Virus record (IMG/VR): IMGVR_UViG_3300045921_000132
Span: 1 to 36,265 of that record
Strand: one strand, 5' to 3'
Source of the DNA: a virus
DNA: 36,265 bases
This document shows positions 31,048 to 36,108 of the stretch, one piece after another. The notes under the pieces were generated by a model, which made no database searches, was not told the origin of the DNA, and saw only the letters and a program-made list of their open reading frames with translations. The stretch's first letter is position 1. Each line of letters opens with the position of its first letter. The translations under genes were made by a program, and so were the position numbers.

Positions 31048-32001
31048 ATGACCGACACCACCCCGACGCCGCGCGCTGCCAACCCATTCGGCGATGCGCA
31101 GATCGCCGCACGGCCTGGCAGCAACGCCGTCGCCCAGTCCGACCAGCAGCGCGCCATCGCCGAGGTGCAGGCTGCCATGATGATCGCGAGGATGAACCCG
31201 CGCGATCCGATCGCGGCGATGGACCGCATCCTCAACGCCTGCACGCGCCCGACGCTGGCGAACGCGGCCGTCTACACCTACAGCCGCGGCGGCAGCGACA
31301 TCAGCGGCCCTTCGATTCGTCTCGCCGAGGCGATCGCGCAGGCGTGGGGCAACATGCAGTTCGGCATCCGCGAGCTCGACCAGCGCAACGGCGAGAGCAC
31401 GGTGCAGGCGTTCGCGTGGGACGTCGAGACCAACACGCGGCGCGAGGTGACGTTCCAAGTGCCGCACGTCCGCTACACCAAGGACGGCGCGCGGCGGCTC
31501 GTGGATCCGCGCGACATCTACGAGATGGTCGCCAATCAGGGAGCGCGCCGGCTGCGAGCCTGCATCCTCGGCGTCATTCCTGGCGACGTCGTCGAGGCCG
31601 CCGTCACGCAGTGCGAGACGACCATGCACGCGACGGCCGACACGAGTGCAGAGGCCATGCGCAAGCTGGTCGAGGCCTTCGGTCAGTTCGGCGTCACGCG
31701 CGAGCAGATCGAGCGGCGCATCCAGCGCAGGCTGGACGCGATCCAGCCTGCGCAGGTCGTCACGCTGCGCAAGATCTACGCGAGCCTGCGCGACGGCATG
31801 AGCGCCGCAGCGGACTGGTTTGAGCCTCTTGACACGCCGCAGGCGACCGGCACGCAAGAGCCAGCCGGCGCCGCCGACAGGCTCAAGTCGGCGCTGCGAC
31901 AGCGTGCCGCCGCGGCCAGGGCAACGGCACCTGCCGAGGCGCAGCGGCACGACCCTGCGCCGTCCAAGGCCGCCGCCGATGCGGCCGGTGACGAGGCATG
32001 A
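31048..32001 (+). CDS. Putative single-strand annealing protein (RecT/Erf-type)
   Basis: A 317-residue protein starting six bases after GGAGG. The core (about residues 25-200) includes AEVQAAMMIARMNPRD, YSRGGSDISGPSIRLAEAIA and EVTFQVPHVRYTKDGARRL, followed by NQGARRLRACILGVIPGDVV, a family often paired with YqaJ nucleases in phages. The C-terminal about 80 residues are Ala/Pro-rich and likely disordered, as in annealing proteins that bind SSB-like partners. The assignment rests on gene pairing and general similarity. The stop codon overlaps the first csf gene (ATGATG). Confidence 0.7.
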   Translation: MTDTTPTPRAANPFGDAQIAARPGSNAVAQSDQQRAIAEVQAAMMIARMNPRDPIAAMDRILNACTRPTLANAAVYTYSRGGSDISGPSIRLAEAIAQAWGNMQFGIRELDQRNGESTVQAFAWDVETNTRREVTFQVPHVRYTKDGARRLVDPRDIYEMVANQGARRLRACILGVIPGDVVEAAVTQCETTMHATADTSAEAMRKLVEAFGQFGVTREQIERRIQRRLDAIQPAQVVTLRKIYASLRDGMSAAADWFEPLDTPQATGTQEPAGAADRLKSALRQRAAAARATAPAEAQRHDPAPSKAAADAAGDEA

Positions 32002-33131
32002 TGGCCCCGAGCCCGCGCAGCGCCGCCAGGCATGCCTTGGCCGCCGCCATGGGCGTGGCCAGCGGCGCCGGCTGCCGCTGTTTCGTCTGTGGCAGCTCGC
32101 CGTACGACTCGGCCGGCAAATGGCGCAAGGCGCTGGGCGCGGGCTTCTCCGATTGGGACTGCTGCGTCGATCGAGAGGCCGACGACGTGTGCACAGGCTG
32201 CCTGCGCCTGCTCTCCGGCCGTCCTGGAGACGACCCGCCGCCGCTGCGCACGCTGACCGTCGCCGTGATCGGCGGTCGGCTGGTCACGCCCGCATGGGCC
32301 GACGTCTGGTCTCTGCTGATCGCGCCCCCCGATGACCTCCAAGTCCTGTCGTGGGCGGTGAGCCGCCAGAAGCACCATGTGCTGTACGCCGAGCCTTGCA
32401 CGCCGGCCGTGCTGCGCATCGGGTCCGACGCCGGGACCATTGACGTGCGCCCTCGACGCGACGCGCCATTGTACGCCGCCGTGCTGGCCCTGCGAGCCGG
32501 TGACGACAAGGGCCGCGCTTGGTTCTCTCGCGACGAGATCCTCTCCGGGCACTACTCCACCACCAAGATCGCCGCCCGCAGCGCGGCCGCCTGGGCCGAG
32601 GCCGAGGCGGTCATCGCGCCGCGGCGCGGAGACCCGGCCCTGCAAATCATCGTCGCCCACGCCCCCGTCACGATCTCCACCACGACCACGGAGCCACCCA
32701 TGATCGACCCCACCGACGAGCGCGCGATCGAGCTGCTGCTTGCGCTGTGCCAGTCCTCCGAGGCGCGCACGAAAGACGGCCTCACCTTCTGGCAGGCGCT
32801 GCTCCCACGGCGCGTGCAGCGCCACAGCGGGCGCGGGATCGAGGCGTTTTGCGCCTACATGATGGCCGACCTCGCCGTGCCTCCCAGCAGCCCAGGCGGC
32901 ATCGCCGTCGCGCAGTACGCCGCAAGCATCGCGCGTGACGACGCCGTCGCCGTGATGCGCCGCATGCGCGAGCGCCCGTCGCTGCTCATCGCGCTGGCCT
33001 ATGACCGGCACAAGGCCGCCACCGCAGCCCGCCGTCAGCGCGCCAAGGCCGCCCCGCTGTCGGCAGACGAGCCGCCGCAGGACACGCAGACGACCATGTT
33101 CGACGTAGTGGAGACCCACCATGACCTCTGA
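31998..33131 (+). CDS. csf1: Csf1-like type IV large subunit with C-terminal Cas11-like domain
   Basis: A 377-residue protein. The N-terminus has two zinc-binding cysteine pairs (Cys28-x2-Cys31 in CRCFVCG and Cys65-x2-Cys68 in CTGCLRLLSG), the mark of Csf1-type large subunits. Residues about 85-234 are mixed alpha/beta (VAVIGGRLVTPAWADVW, QVLSWAVSRQKHHVLY). After residue 234 an in-frame ATG with GGAG starts a 143-residue all-helical part. Full-length Csf1 proteins are usually about 200-250 residues, which fits the first part alone. The ATG overlaps the annealing-protein stop, and the gene overlaps csf2 by 11 bases. Zinc finger, size and context make Csf1 likely; a search is needed to confirm. 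Confidence 0.75.
   Translation: MMAPSPRSAARHALAAAMGVASGAGCRCFVCGSSPYDSAGKWRKALGAGFSDWDCCVDREADDVCTGCLRLLSGRPGDDPPPLRTLTVAVIGGRLVTPAWADVWSLLIAPPDDLQVLSWAVSRQKHHVLYAEPCTPAVLRIGSDAGTIDVRPRRDAPLYAAVLALRAGDDKGRAWFSRDEILSGHYSTTKIAARSAAAWAEAEAVIAPRRGDPALQIIVAHAPVTISTTTTEPPMIDPTDERAIELLLALCQSSEARTKDGLTFWQALLPRRVQRHSGRGIEAFCAYMMADLAVPPSSPGGIAVAQYAASIARDDAVAVMRRMRERPSLLIALAYDRHKAATAARRQRAKAAPLSADEPPQDTQTTMFDVVETHHDL
32700..33131 (+). CDS. Possible internal product: Cas11-like small subunit
   Basis: An in-frame ATG at 32700 is preceded by GGAG (32690-32693) with six bases between. The resulting 143-residue protein (MIDPTDERAIELLLALCQSS) is almost entirely helical, with Arg-rich helices (ALLPRRVQRHSGRG, AVAVMRRMRERPSLL) and a disordered tail. 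Size and composition match Cas11 small subunits, which line the effector next to the target strand. Internal Cas11 starts inside large-subunit genes are established for several type I systems. Whether this start is used here is inference. Confidence 0.55.
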   Translation: MIDPTDERAIELLLALCQSSEARTKDGLTFWQALLPRRVQRHSGRGIEAFCAYMMADLAVPPSSPGGIAVAQYAASIARDDAVAVMRRMRERPSLLIALAYDRHKAATAARRQRAKAAPLSADEPPQDTQTTMFDVVETHHDL

Positions 33132-34023
33132 CCTGACCATGCCGCAATCCCGCGTGCGCGCGCCGAAGAACATGACGCCATACCGCGTCGTCATCACCAC
33201 CGAAGCGCCGCTGCACCACGGCGCATTCGGCGCCGACTCCGGCAACGCGGTGGCCTTCCGGCGCATCGCTCTGGCGATGCGCCCGGACTCCGCCGGCGTG
33301 CCCGCCATCAGCGGCAACGCGCTGCGCGGCTGCCTGCGCCGCATCGTCATGCGCGACCTGCTGATGCGCTGCGGTCTGACCGTGGCCACCTACGCTGAGC
33401 ACGGCCTGAGCTCCCAGCAGTGGGACAAGCTCTACGCCGCGCTGGCCAATGGCGGCCATCTGGAGGGGTCCGAGACGCGCACCGACCCCAAGCGCACCCG
33501 CGAGATCCGCGATGCGCTGCCCGCGCTGTCCGTGTTCGGCGCCGCGCTGTACACCTGGATGCTGCCGGGCGTCGTGTCGATCGGGTGGCTGTACCCGCGC
33601 TGCACCGAGACGGTTGAGTCCGCGCTGGTGCCGGCCGACCTCGCGGTCGACGCGCCGCTGGTGCCCGGCGAGACCCTGCTGACCGACGTATCGCTGGTGC
33701 GTCACGTCGACCGCGACGAGCAGGACCCGCAGTCCAGCGGCGTTACGCCCATGCCGGTGACCGTCGAGGCCCTGCTGCCAGGCACAACGCTGGTCACCAC
33801 CATCGTGCCCATGCGCAGCATCTACGACGTGGAGCTCGGCGTGCTCGGCTACGCCCTGTCGCTGCTGCGCACGCTCGGCGGCAAGACCGGATCCGGTTTC
33901 GGTCGGCTGCGCGTCGAGCACGGCATCCCTGCCGAGCCGTACACGGCATGGCTGGAGGATCCTCAGCGCATCAACGCCGCGCGCGCCGCGCTGATCTCGA
34001 TCGCGCAGGCGGCGGGGAGATAG
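33121..34023 (+). CDS. csf2: Csf2 (Cas7-like) type IV backbone protein
   Basis: A 300-residue RAMP-superfamily protein. APLHHGAFGADSGNAVAFRR (about 29-48) and AISGNALRGCLRR (62-74) match the first strand, loop and helix of Cas7 proteins in type III and IV, where an I-x-G-x-x-L-R-G pattern is nearly invariant. The C-terminus has the glycine-rich loop GGKTGSGFGRL (253-263). Several copies would polymerise along the guide RNA. Asp39 lies where type III Cas7 has its target-cleaving Asp. The ATG overlaps the csf1 stop; csf3 follows three bases after the stop. Confidence 0.85.
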   Translation: MTSDLTMPQSRVRAPKNMTPYRVVITTEAPLHHGAFGADSGNAVAFRRIALAMRPDSAGVPAISGNALRGCLRRIVMRDLLMRCGLTVATYAEHGLSSQQWDKLYAALANGGHLEGSETRTDPKRTREIRDALPALSVFGAALYTWMLPGVVSIGWLYPRCTETVESALVPADLAVDAPLVPGETLLTDVSLVRHVDRDEQDPQSSGVTPMPVTVEALLPGTTLVTTIVPMRSIYDVELGVLGYALSLLRTLGGKTGSGFGRLRVEHGIPAEPYTAWLEDPQRINAARAALISIAQAAGR

Positions 34024-34026
34024 GCC

Positions 34027-34836
34027 GTGCCAGTCGTGCTGCTGACAGCGCACGTGGCCGCGCCCATCGTGGTCGACGACGAGCTGCATCTGGACGGGCT
34101 GCTGGAGACGGCGCACCCCAACTCCCGACAGGTGCCCGTGTCGCGCACGACGAGGCTCGAGGACCTGCCGACCGTGCCCATACCCATCTGCTCGCACTCT
34201 CTAAACGGGGTCACGGCGCGCCTGTGCACGTCGATGCGCCTGCCAGACGAAGCCCGCATGGTCCGATCGCACGTCGTCAAGCGCCGCGACGGAGAGGACA
34301 TCGAGGCGCTGGCCAACGGCGTGAATCTGGGGCTTGGGCCCGGCAAGAACCGCATGCAGGCGCTGACGACGATCGTCACTCCATACGTGCAGTGGGCCGC
34401 AATCGGCGATCGCCGCGAACTGCTGCGGCTGGCGCGCCGGGTGCTGTTCGTCGGCTCCTGGCGCAGCGCCGGCTACGGGCTGGTGACCGGCTGGAGCGCC
34501 GAATACCTGGACGCCGACCCCACCACCGTGCTGGTGGCCGACGGCGTCGCGCAGCGCCACCTGCCGGCGTCATGGTGCGCGTGGCACGAGGGCACCGTCA
34601 CGGGCCCGATCAGGCCGCCTTACTGGCACCCGGCGCGCCAGACCGAGACCATTGTCCGCGCAGGCACACGCTGCGCGCTCAAACCCACCGTGGAGGCCGC
34701 ATGCCATGCCGTTGCTGACCCAGCTGCGCTCCGAGCACACCGCGAACGCAAAGTCGCGCGTGCGGGCCCTCGCAGCGCTGGCGCATACCCGCCGCATGTC
34801 GATGCTGGTGGACCACGCACTGCGGGTCATCCATGA
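34027..34836 (+). CDS. csf3: Csf3 (Cas5-like) type IV protein, with C-terminal overrun into cysH
   Basis: A 269-residue protein starting at GTG, seven bases after GGGGAG. It begins with a RAMP-like strand (VVLLTAHVAAPIVVDDELHL) and has the glycine-rich stretch LGLGPGKNRMQAL (101-113) and a second loop GSWRSAGYGLVTGW (143-156) as in Csf3/Cas5 proteins, then RPPYWHPARQ. It would cap the 5' end of the guide. The core looks complete by about residue 218. The remaining about 43 residues overlap cysH in another frame and are low-complexity, suggesting a lost stop codon. Confidence 0.72.
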   Translation: MPVVLLTAHVAAPIVVDDELHLDGLLETAHPNSRQVPVSRTTRLEDLPTVPIPICSHSLNGVTARLCTSMRLPDEARMVRSHVVKRRDGEDIEALANGVNLGLGPGKNRMQALTTIVTPYVQWAAIGDRRELLRLARRVLFVGSWRSAGYGLVTGWSAEYLDADPTTVLVADGVAQRHLPASWCAWHEGTVTGPIRPPYWHPARQTETIVRAGTRCALKPTVEAACHAVADPAALRAHRERKVARAGPRSAGAYPPHVDAGGPRTAGHP

Positions 34837-35482
34837 CTGGCGGTCGCGGTGCCAGCGGCCAGCCGTCTCGTGCAGCGGCGGCAAGGATTCCACCGCGCTG
34901 CTGCTGCTGACCATGCGCATCGACCCTACCATCCCCGTCTACCGCGCCGACCCGCCCAACCCGTTGCCGGACCGCGCGGCGCACGTGGACCTCATGGCCC
35001 GCGCTGCGGCTCAGGCCGACTGGCGCATCGTGCCGTACCAATGGGACGTCGAGGCCGTCCTGGACGGCCGAGAGCCCTACCCTGCGCTGCTCAAGATCAG
35101 GCGGCTGGAGGAGCGCCTGCGCGCCGACGGCATCGATGGCGTGGCACTGGGCCTGCGGGCGCAGGAGAGCCGCGGGCGCGCGTGGAACCTCATCACGCGG
35201 GGCGAGCACTACGTCGCCAACGGTCGGCGCGTGTGCACCCCGCTGGCACAGTGGACCGCCGACGAGGTGGTCGGCTTCGTGCTGGCCGAGGACCGGCTGC
35301 CGCTGAACCCCGTCTACACCAAGCTTGAGGGCTTGGGCGACCTCAACCGCGTGCGCGACGGCACTTGGTACCCGCGCGAGACGCCAGACGCCCACGGTTA
35401 CAGGAATTGGCTGGCGCTGCACTACCCCGAAGTTCTGCCCTTGTACGACCGCGCCGTCGCCATTGGCGCGCAGACCAGATGA
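34706..35482 (+). CDS. CysH-like PP-loop protein associated with type IV-B
   Basis: A 258-residue protein of the PAPS-reductase/N-type ATP pyrophosphatase family. SCSGGKDSTALLLL carries an intact PP-loop (SGGKDS, 57-62); GLRAQESRGR (149-158) and PLAQWTADEVVGFV (179-192) are the later family motifs. The reductase C-terminal ECGLH cysteine is absent, so it is unlikely to reduce PAPS and may instead activate a substrate with ATP, as DndC-type enzymes do. CysH-like genes are a hallmark of type IV-B loci, with unknown role. GGAGG lies nine bases before the chosen ATG; upstream in-frame starts lie within csf3. Confidence 0.88.
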   Translation: MPLLTQLRSEHTANAKSRVRALAALAHTRRMSMLVDHALRVIHDWRSRCQRPAVSCSGGKDSTALLLLTMRIDPTIPVYRADPPNPLPDRAAHVDLMARAAAQADWRIVPYQWDVEAVLDGREPYPALLKIRRLEERLRADGIDGVALGLRAQESRGRAWNLITRGEHYVANGRRVCTPLAQWTADEVVGFVLAEDRLPLNPVYTKLEGLGDLNRVRDGTWYPRETPDAHGYRNWLALHYPEVLPLYDRAVAIGAQTR

Positions 35483-36108
35483 CCGCCATGCCATCTTCAC
35501 ACGTAGCCGTGCTGTTCGCGCGGCACGACAGCGGCTACAAGACCATGCCAGACGTGGACGTCTGGGACAAGAACCGCGACGCCATGACGTACAAGGGCGA
35601 GCTGCCCGTGGTCGCGCATCCGCCCTGCACGAGGTGGTCGCTGATCAACGGCGTTGTGTTGTCTCGCTACGCGCACAAGGCGGCCGAGTTTGCATGGGGC
35701 AACGACGGCGGCACTTTCGCGTTTGCGTTGGCGACGGTGCGCCGCGTCGGCGGCGTCCTCGAGCATCCAGCCAGCAGCCGCGCGTGGGCGCATTTCGGCC
35801 TCCCGCGCCGCGGCCGAGCCCCGGACCAGTGGGGCGGGTGGACAGTCGAGGTGCGGCAGTGCGACTGGGGCCACCGCGCCGAGAAACGCACCTGGCTATA
35901 CATCGTCGGCGCCGGGCCTGACGACCTGCCGCCCATGCCCGCGCCGCGCCAGCATTCGGCCGTCGTCGTGCGCATGCCCGAGTGCAGGACCGTCAAGATC
36001 ATGGGCAAGGCCGAGCGAGAGCACACGCCGCCGGCGTTTCGCGCCTGGTTGGTGGAGCTGGCCAGGCGCTGCAAAGCTCCGCGCTCAGCAGCAACGCGCA
36101 GCGCCTGA
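35479..36108 (+). CDS. Small cytosine-methylase-like phage protein
   Basis: A 209-residue protein whose ATG overlaps the cysH stop (ATGA). VVAHPPCTRWSL (44-55) resembles motif IV of C5 cytosine methyltransferases, with the catalytic Pro-Cys, and GVLEHPASSRAW (92-103) resembles motif VI. No SAM-binding motif I is visible at the N-terminus, so this is either a reduced, partner-dependent or non-catalytic relative; phages carry many such proteins. Coupling to cysH places it in the same operon as the type IV genes. The C-terminus is basic. Confidence 0.65.
   Translation: MTAMPSSHVAVLFARHDSGYKTMPDVDVWDKNRDAMTYKGELPVVAHPPCTRWSLINGVVLSRYAHKAAEFAWGNDGGTFAFALATVRRVGGVLEHPASSRAWAHFGLPRRGRAPDQWGGWTVEVRQCDWGHRAEKRTWLYIVGAGPDDLPPMPAPRQHSAVVVRMPECRTVKIMGKAEREHTPPAFRAWLVELARRCKAPRSAATRSA

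What the first reader, a model, noticed from the sequence alone, without database searches (positions are those of the whole stretch)
34874..35482. Intact PP-loop but no reductase cysteine in the type IV-associated CysH
SGGKDS is complete, so ATP binding and substrate adenylation are likely, but the C-terminal ECGLH cysteine of PAPS reductases is missing. This points towards a DndC-like activation chemistry such as sulfur transfer to DNA or RNA. In this operon it is followed by a methylase-like gene, so nucleic-acid modification is an appealing joint role.
Basis: partly seen in the sequence, partly recalled or inferred. Interest (0 to 1): 0.78.

Follow-up and report, generated by a model that had tools for sequence, protein, structure and literature searches.

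The report
Phage CRISPR CysH-like enzyme without cysteine
A phage carries a small type IV-B CRISPR gene set whose CysH-like protein keeps the ATP-handling active site but lacks the sulfur-handling cysteines, so it is probably an ATP-using adenylating enzyme and not a sulfur enzyme; the pattern is already published for this family, and this is a new phage-borne member.

Summary
The gene (34703 or 34796 to 35482, not 34874) encodes a PAPS_reduct-family protein with an intact SGGKDS loop and no ECGLH. It ends a phage-borne type IV-B operon: csf1 with cas11 apparently fused to it, csf2, csf3, cysH; no CRISPR array found.

The features are a family trait. In 19 IV-B loci found through csf2 alone, S-x-G-K-D-S and R-x-x-E-x-x-x-R are invariant, no column has Cys in more than 3 of 19 rows, and 5 members have no Cys in the matched region. 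Seven genuine reductases show the reverse: ECGLH in all, SGGKDS in none. Taylor et al. 2021 already published the core point and argued against phosphorothioation.

The sulfur reading is not supported: DndC's cysteines are absent, and DndC C280S abolishes DNA phosphorothioation. The predicted model ranks closest to adenylyltransferases (FAD synthase, CysD).

The methylase link is not supported by the nearest relatives: one identical to the window over 8.6 kb lacks that gene, and so does the 75% relative.

Best reading: an N-type ATP pyrophosphatase/adenylyltransferase serving the Csf complex. Its substrate is unknown; complex-bound nucleic acid is my guess. New member of a known kind; the csf1-cas11 fusion is the novel part.

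The parts
31998..33131 (+). csf1 (Cas8-like) with a Cas11-like small subunit in the same ORF (residues about 235-377, from Met codon 32700)
   Evidence: PADLOC Csf1 6.6e-14 over residues 25-223; residues 230-346 of the predicted model match Cas11 of the type IV-B complex, 7jhy_g, Z 9.8, next row 5.7
33121..34023 (+). csf2 (Cas7-like)
   Evidence: PADLOC Csf2_0_IV 2.2e-35
34027..34836 (+). csf3 (Cas5-like); its 3' end overlaps cysH in another frame
   Evidence: PADLOC Csf3_0_IV 4.8e-27
34703..35482 (+). cysH-like gene (PAPS_reduct family); likely start ATG 34796, alternative ATG 34703
   Evidence: PF01507 3e-13; alignments; AlphaFold model pLDDT 87
34874..34891 (+). PP-loop SGGKDS
   Evidence: sequence; S, G, K, D and S invariant in 36 type IV-B CysH proteins
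35150..35179 (+). GLRAQESRGR loop, with Arg, Glu and Arg invariant
35234..35236 (+). Cys codon before PL..W, the only Cys downstream of the PP-loop; Cys at this column in 19% of family members
35479..36108 (+). C5-methylase-like gene (phrog_12600); variable cassette, not a stable part of the operon
   Evidence: absent from the near-identical virus L002

Best explanation
The protein is the CysH-like accessory protein of a phage-encoded, array-less type IV-B system. It most likely works as an N-type ATP pyrophosphatase: the SGGKDS loop binds ATP, the R..E...R loop places the substrate, and AMP is transferred to the substrate with release of pyrophosphate, as in CysD and eukaryotic FAD synthase, without a Cys, an Fe-S cluster or sulfur. 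Shown: sequence features, family-wide conservation, predicted fold, operon context. Inferred: ATP hydrolysis and AMP transfer. Guess: the substrate, for which I favour nucleic acid held by the Csf filament.
For: S-x-G-K-D-S and R..E...R are invariant in 19 of 19 CysH proteins found through csf2 and not through the motif. The seven genuine reductases have ECGLH in 7/7 and SGGKDS in 0/7, while CysD and DndC, which use ATP, share the SxGKDS loop and the Glu in the R-loop. The profile's best PDB hit is CysD, 1.8e-25, just ahead of CysH at 8.7e-25. VIA-align ranks the FAD synthase PAPS domain first (Z 19.4, rmsd 2.1) and CysD next (Z 18.8, rmsd 2.1), with reductases at Z 16.7-18.2 and rmsd 2.7-3.6. 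CysH is the most constrained protein of the operon against L004: 81% identity and dN/dS about 0.15, versus 50-72% identity for the others. Taylor et al. 2021 reached the same mechanism from other sequences (PMC8175902).
Against: No biochemistry exists that I could find. Foldseek, unlike VIA-align, ranks a PAPS reductase first, Z differences of about 1 are ties, and a shared fold does not prove function. A 2024 review calls the family an inactivated PAPS reductase derivative (PMC11656645). The substrate is not identified by any evidence here.
Confidence: 0.55

Rival explanations
1. Catalytically idle nucleotide-binding subunit: it binds ATP or AMP to regulate or assemble the Csf filament, with no product.
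For: Described as an inactivated PAPS reductase derivative in a 2024 review (PMC11656645); no substrate partner gene is conserved beside it.
Against: The whole PP-loop including Lys, Asp and Ser and the R..E...R loop stay invariant across phage, archaeal and actinobacterial loci, more than binding alone would demand.
Confidence: 0.2
2. Adenylates a small molecule (metabolite, cofactor or signal), like CysD or FAD synthase, and the product acts on the host or the Csf complex.
For: The closest folds and the best profile hit are enzymes that adenylate small molecules; type IV is held to derive from type III, some of whose Cas10 proteins make adenylate signals (own knowledge).
Against: No sensor or effector gene for such a signal was recognised in the operon or shared among the loci; it cannot be told apart from the best explanation by sequence.
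Confidence: 0.13
3. Activates nucleic acid for thiolation with sulfur supplied in trans (sulfide or a host sulfur carrier), needing no Cys of its own.
For: PP-loop sulfur enzymes (TtuA, LarE, NcsA) also match the fold, Z about 13; the chemistry after adenylation is open.
Against: The thiolating enzymes listed rely on Cys or Fe-S (TtuA, NcsA, LarE: entry titles and own knowledge); no desulfurase or sulfur-carrier gene was recognised in the operon.
Confidence: 0.07
4. DndC-like phosphorothioation or PAPS reduction using its own Cys.
For: Same Pfam family; DndC shares the SGGKDS and R..ES..R motifs; the window does have one Cys (35234) before PL..W.
Against: DndC Cys positions are Tyr, Arg, Thr, Pro, Leu or gaps here; C280S in DndC abolishes the modification; ECGLH is absent; 9 of 36 family members have no Cys in the matched region.
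Confidence: 0.03

Closest known systems
Type IV-B CRISPR-associated CysH-like protein (CasCysH; Taylor et al. 2021, PMC8175902)
   Same: csf operon context, SGGxDS loop, missing catalytic Cys, no CRISPR array found
   Different: In a tailed phage; csf1 and cas11 in one ORF; variable methylase cassette downstream
Fuxivirus type IV-B locus (PMC10848311)
   Same: Virus-encoded type IV-B with csf1, csf2, csf3 and an adjacent CysH
   Different: [quoted passage not shown] no array found here
CysD, small subunit of ATP sulfurylase (1zun)
   Same: PP-loop, Glu in the R-loop, no catalytic Cys, fold Z 18.8
   Different: CysD adenylates sulfate with CysN; about 21% identity; different genomic context
FAD synthase / FMN adenylyltransferase (8rom, 3g6k, 2wsi)
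   Same: PAPS_reduct-like fold, AMP transfer without Cys, Z 14.8-19.4
   Different: Substrate FMN; cofactor synthesis, no CRISPR link
DndC
   Same: PP-loop and R..ES..R
   Different: Conserved Cys including 4Fe-4S ligands, and Dnd partner proteins, absent here

Membership tests
Type IV-B CRISPR-Cas | csf1, csf2 and csf3 core genes | tested here: met
   PADLOC matches; HMMs from annotated IV-B loci
Type IV-B CRISPR-Cas | cas11 small subunit | tested here: met
   Not a separate gene; C-terminal part of the csf1 ORF matches 7jhy_g Z 9.8; PADLOC profiles alone missed it; model confidence is moderate
Type IV-B CRISPR-Cas | no CRISPR array, no adaptation module | tested here: met
   No array-like or mini-array repeat found; no adaptation genes among the neighbouring genes scanned; the record may be incomplete
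Type IV-B CRISPR-Cas | CysH-like gene in the locus | tested here: met
   Directly downstream of csf3
CasCysH | intact SGGxDS loop and no reductase Cys | tested here: met
PAPS/APS reductase (CysH) | C-terminal ECGLH catalytic Cys | tested here: not met
   Present in 7/7 reference reductases, absent here
DndC | conserved Cys, including 4Fe-4S ligands | tested here: not met
   functional need from PMC11662687
DndC | neighbouring dndD, dndE and a desulfurase | tested here: not met
   None recognised among the neighbouring genes scanned
N-type ATP pyrophosphatase / adenylyltransferase | ATP turnover with AMP transfer | not testable with these tools
   Motifs and fold are consistent; needs biochemistry
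DNA cytosine methyltransferase (35479-36108) | complete methylase motifs | tested here: inconclusive
   phrog_12600 1.4e-62 (unknown function), phrog_757 DNA methyltransferase 1.4e-4; no Pfam match

The most novel reading that the evidence does not exclude
The type IV-B CysH is an ATP-dependent enzyme that adenylates RNA or DNA held in the Csf filament, so this CRISPR branch modifies nucleic acid instead of cutting it, and a phage uses it against host or rival nucleic acids.
Probability: 0.25. Interest if true: 0.85.

Novelty: new member of a known kind. Interest (0 to 1): 0.4.

Why it matters
What type IV-B complexes do is an open question, and CysH is thought to be the key. The comparison moves the expected chemistry from sulfur to adenylation: members with no Cys in the matched region make Cys-based thiolation by the protein itself untenable for the family, and the conserved K, D, S, R, E and R give precise mutants for a test. 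The compact phage operon (four ORFs) and the cultured Skermania phage SPI1, which carries the same set annotated as hypothetical proteins, are convenient experimental systems.

Tried and rejected
Sulfur transfer by the protein's own Cys: rejected on Cys distribution and DndC comparison. Joint operon with the methylase: rejected for the close relatives; N6/N4-type methylases follow cysH in L010 and L017, so a loose link to methylases in some loci cannot be excluded. Phylogeny to settle kinship: inconclusive at this distance; one clade of all csf2-linked CysH was rejected (p 0.009), but L021 and L047, labelled outside, turned out to sit beside csf3, so that test was mis-specified and was not rerun. 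A tree position of the window beside the very long branch L048 vanished when long branches were removed. Mini-CRISPR array in the window: none found. Wider search for csf2 in 398 Pseudomonadota genomes: empty and without a positive control, so uninformative. The search for related loci with the csf2 alignment failed for lack of a conserved stretch. Sampling bias: the loci were fetched by a pattern containing SGGKDS, so PP-loop conservation was recounted on the csf2-found set alone.

Full report
OBSERVATION. The window is an IMG/VR virus record of 36,265 bases with tailed-phage genes (terminase, tail, spanin). The PP-loop SGGKDS lies at 34874-34891; the gene itself starts upstream, at ATG 34703 or more probably ATG 34796, and ends at 35482. 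Pfam PAPS_reduct matches at 3e-13. There is no ECGLH and no Cys in the last 40 residues.

CONTEXT. Upstream lie csf1 (31998-33131), csf2 (33121-34023) and csf3 (34027-34836), recognised by PADLOC. The csf1 ORF is 377 aa, longer than usual. A predicted model has low overall confidence (mean pLDDT 57), but its better-predicted helical C-terminal part matches Cas11 of the solved type IV-B complex (7jhy_g, Z 9.8, 110 residues) well above the next row (Z 5.7). An alignment-based comparison was weak (hhalign P 0.001, probability 21%), and PADLOC profiles missed it. So the phage seems to have all four complex subunits, with csf1 and cas11 in one ORF; separate Cas11 could arise from Met codon 32700, which L004 shares. 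No CRISPR array or mini-array was found.

FAMILY COMPARISON. I gathered CysH proteins next to csf genes from plasmids, genomes and viral contigs. Because some were fetched by a pattern containing SGGKDS, the test was done on 19 loci found through csf2 alone. In all 19, S-x-G-K-D-S and R-x-x-E-x-x-x-R are invariant; no column holds Cys in more than 3 rows; five of the 19, and nine of 36 in all, have no Cys from the start of the matched region to the stop. A further csf2-found locus, on a Gloeobacter plasmid, fell under the score limit but has SWGKDS and a similar R-loop; one mycobacterial plasmid locus shows no CysH within 9 kb on either side, and one contig ends too near csf2 to tell.

CONTROLS. 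Seven genuine PAPS/APS reductases all end in or near ECGLH and none has SGGKDS (SFGIQA, SLGAED, SLALED, SNMQDA/G), while CysD and DndC have the SxGKDS loop and a Glu in the R-loop, as here. DndC proteins from our own search carry several conserved Cys positions that are not Cys in the window; published work shows that DndC C280, a 4Fe-4S ligand, is needed for phosphorothioation (PMC11662687).

STRUCTURE. AlphaFold2 on window plus relatives gives mean pLDDT 87 and pTM 0.86. VIA-align ranks the human FAD synthase PAPS domain (Z 19.4, rmsd 2.1, 159 residues) and CysD (Z 18.8, rmsd 2.1, 160 residues) above reductases (Z 16.7-18.2, rmsd 2.7-3.6). Foldseek puts a Vibrio PAPS reductase first and CysD fifth, so the ranking is suggestive only. 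The family profile's best PDB hit is CysD.

SELECTION AND OPERON VARIATION. Against L004, CysH is the most conserved protein of the operon (81% identity; dN 0.14, dS 0.88). The virus L002 is identical to the window over 8.6 kb up to base 35325; ten differences follow in the last part of cysH (one of them changes an amino acid), and then the methylase gene is simply missing in L002. L004 has an excisionase-like gene and an integrase there. No relative of the methylase was found in the loci fetched by then. This looks like recombination with a related phage that brought a methylase cassette. In L010 and L017 an N6/N4-type methylase follows cysH, a different family, so methylases are at most occasional neighbours.

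PHYLOGENY. Without long branches the window sits with Cas-CysH, DUF3440 and nearby proteins (SH-aLRT 98), apart from reductases, CysD and DndC, but AU tests do not exclude joining it to any of the three (p 0.27-0.37). The tree does not decide; motifs and Cys distribution do.

MECHANISM. Most likely ATP-dependent adenylation. Shown: motifs, conservation, predicted fold, context. Inferred: AMP transfer. Unknown: the substrate. The published type IV-B complex binds heterogeneous RNAs (PMC7937560), which makes bound nucleic acid a reasonable guess.

PRIOR KNOWLEDGE. Taylor et al. 2021 already reported the PP-motif, the missing Cys, the argument against phosphorothioation and the AMPylation idea (PMC8175902). 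Virus-borne type IV-B is known from Fuxivirus (PMC10848311), and type IV systems in prophages and phages are noted in reviews. New here, as far as the papers I could read go: this phage locus, the csf1-cas11 fusion, a Cys count on csf2-found loci, the fold ranking, and the evidence that the methylase is a variable cassette.

Noticed in passing
window 31998-33131: csf1 and a Cas11-like small subunit share one ORF (also in L004); the other type IV-B loci with a detected cas11 have a separate cas11 gene. Met codon 32700 could allow internal translation.
   Followed up: partly
L013 1982-5615 (KR011061.1, Skermania phage SPI1): A cultured phage carries a complete type IV-B set (csf1, cas11, csf2, csf3, cysH), all annotated as hypothetical proteins.
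   Followed up: partly
window 34703-34836: The 3' end of csf3 overlaps the 5' part of cysH in another frame by 41 or 134 nt; between window and L004 neither frame shows a third-position excess there.
   Followed up: partly
window 35326-36108 versus L002 8624-8783: Sharp switch from complete identity to divergence near the end of cysH, next to the methylase insertion: a likely recombination junction.
   Followed up: partly
L006, L009, L010, L015, L017: DUF3440 (IbrA-like PAPS_reduct) proteins with ParB-like (IbrB-like) proteins lie near type IV-B loci in five cases.
   Followed up: partly
L010 8547-9272 and L017 5633-6214: N6/N4-type methylase genes with a DPPW motif follow cysH directly or nearly so in an archaeal plasmid and a viral contig.
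   Followed up: partly
L100 (NZ_CP025548.1 10015-28626): A mycobacterial plasmid csf locus with no CysH found within 9 kb on either side.
   Followed up: no
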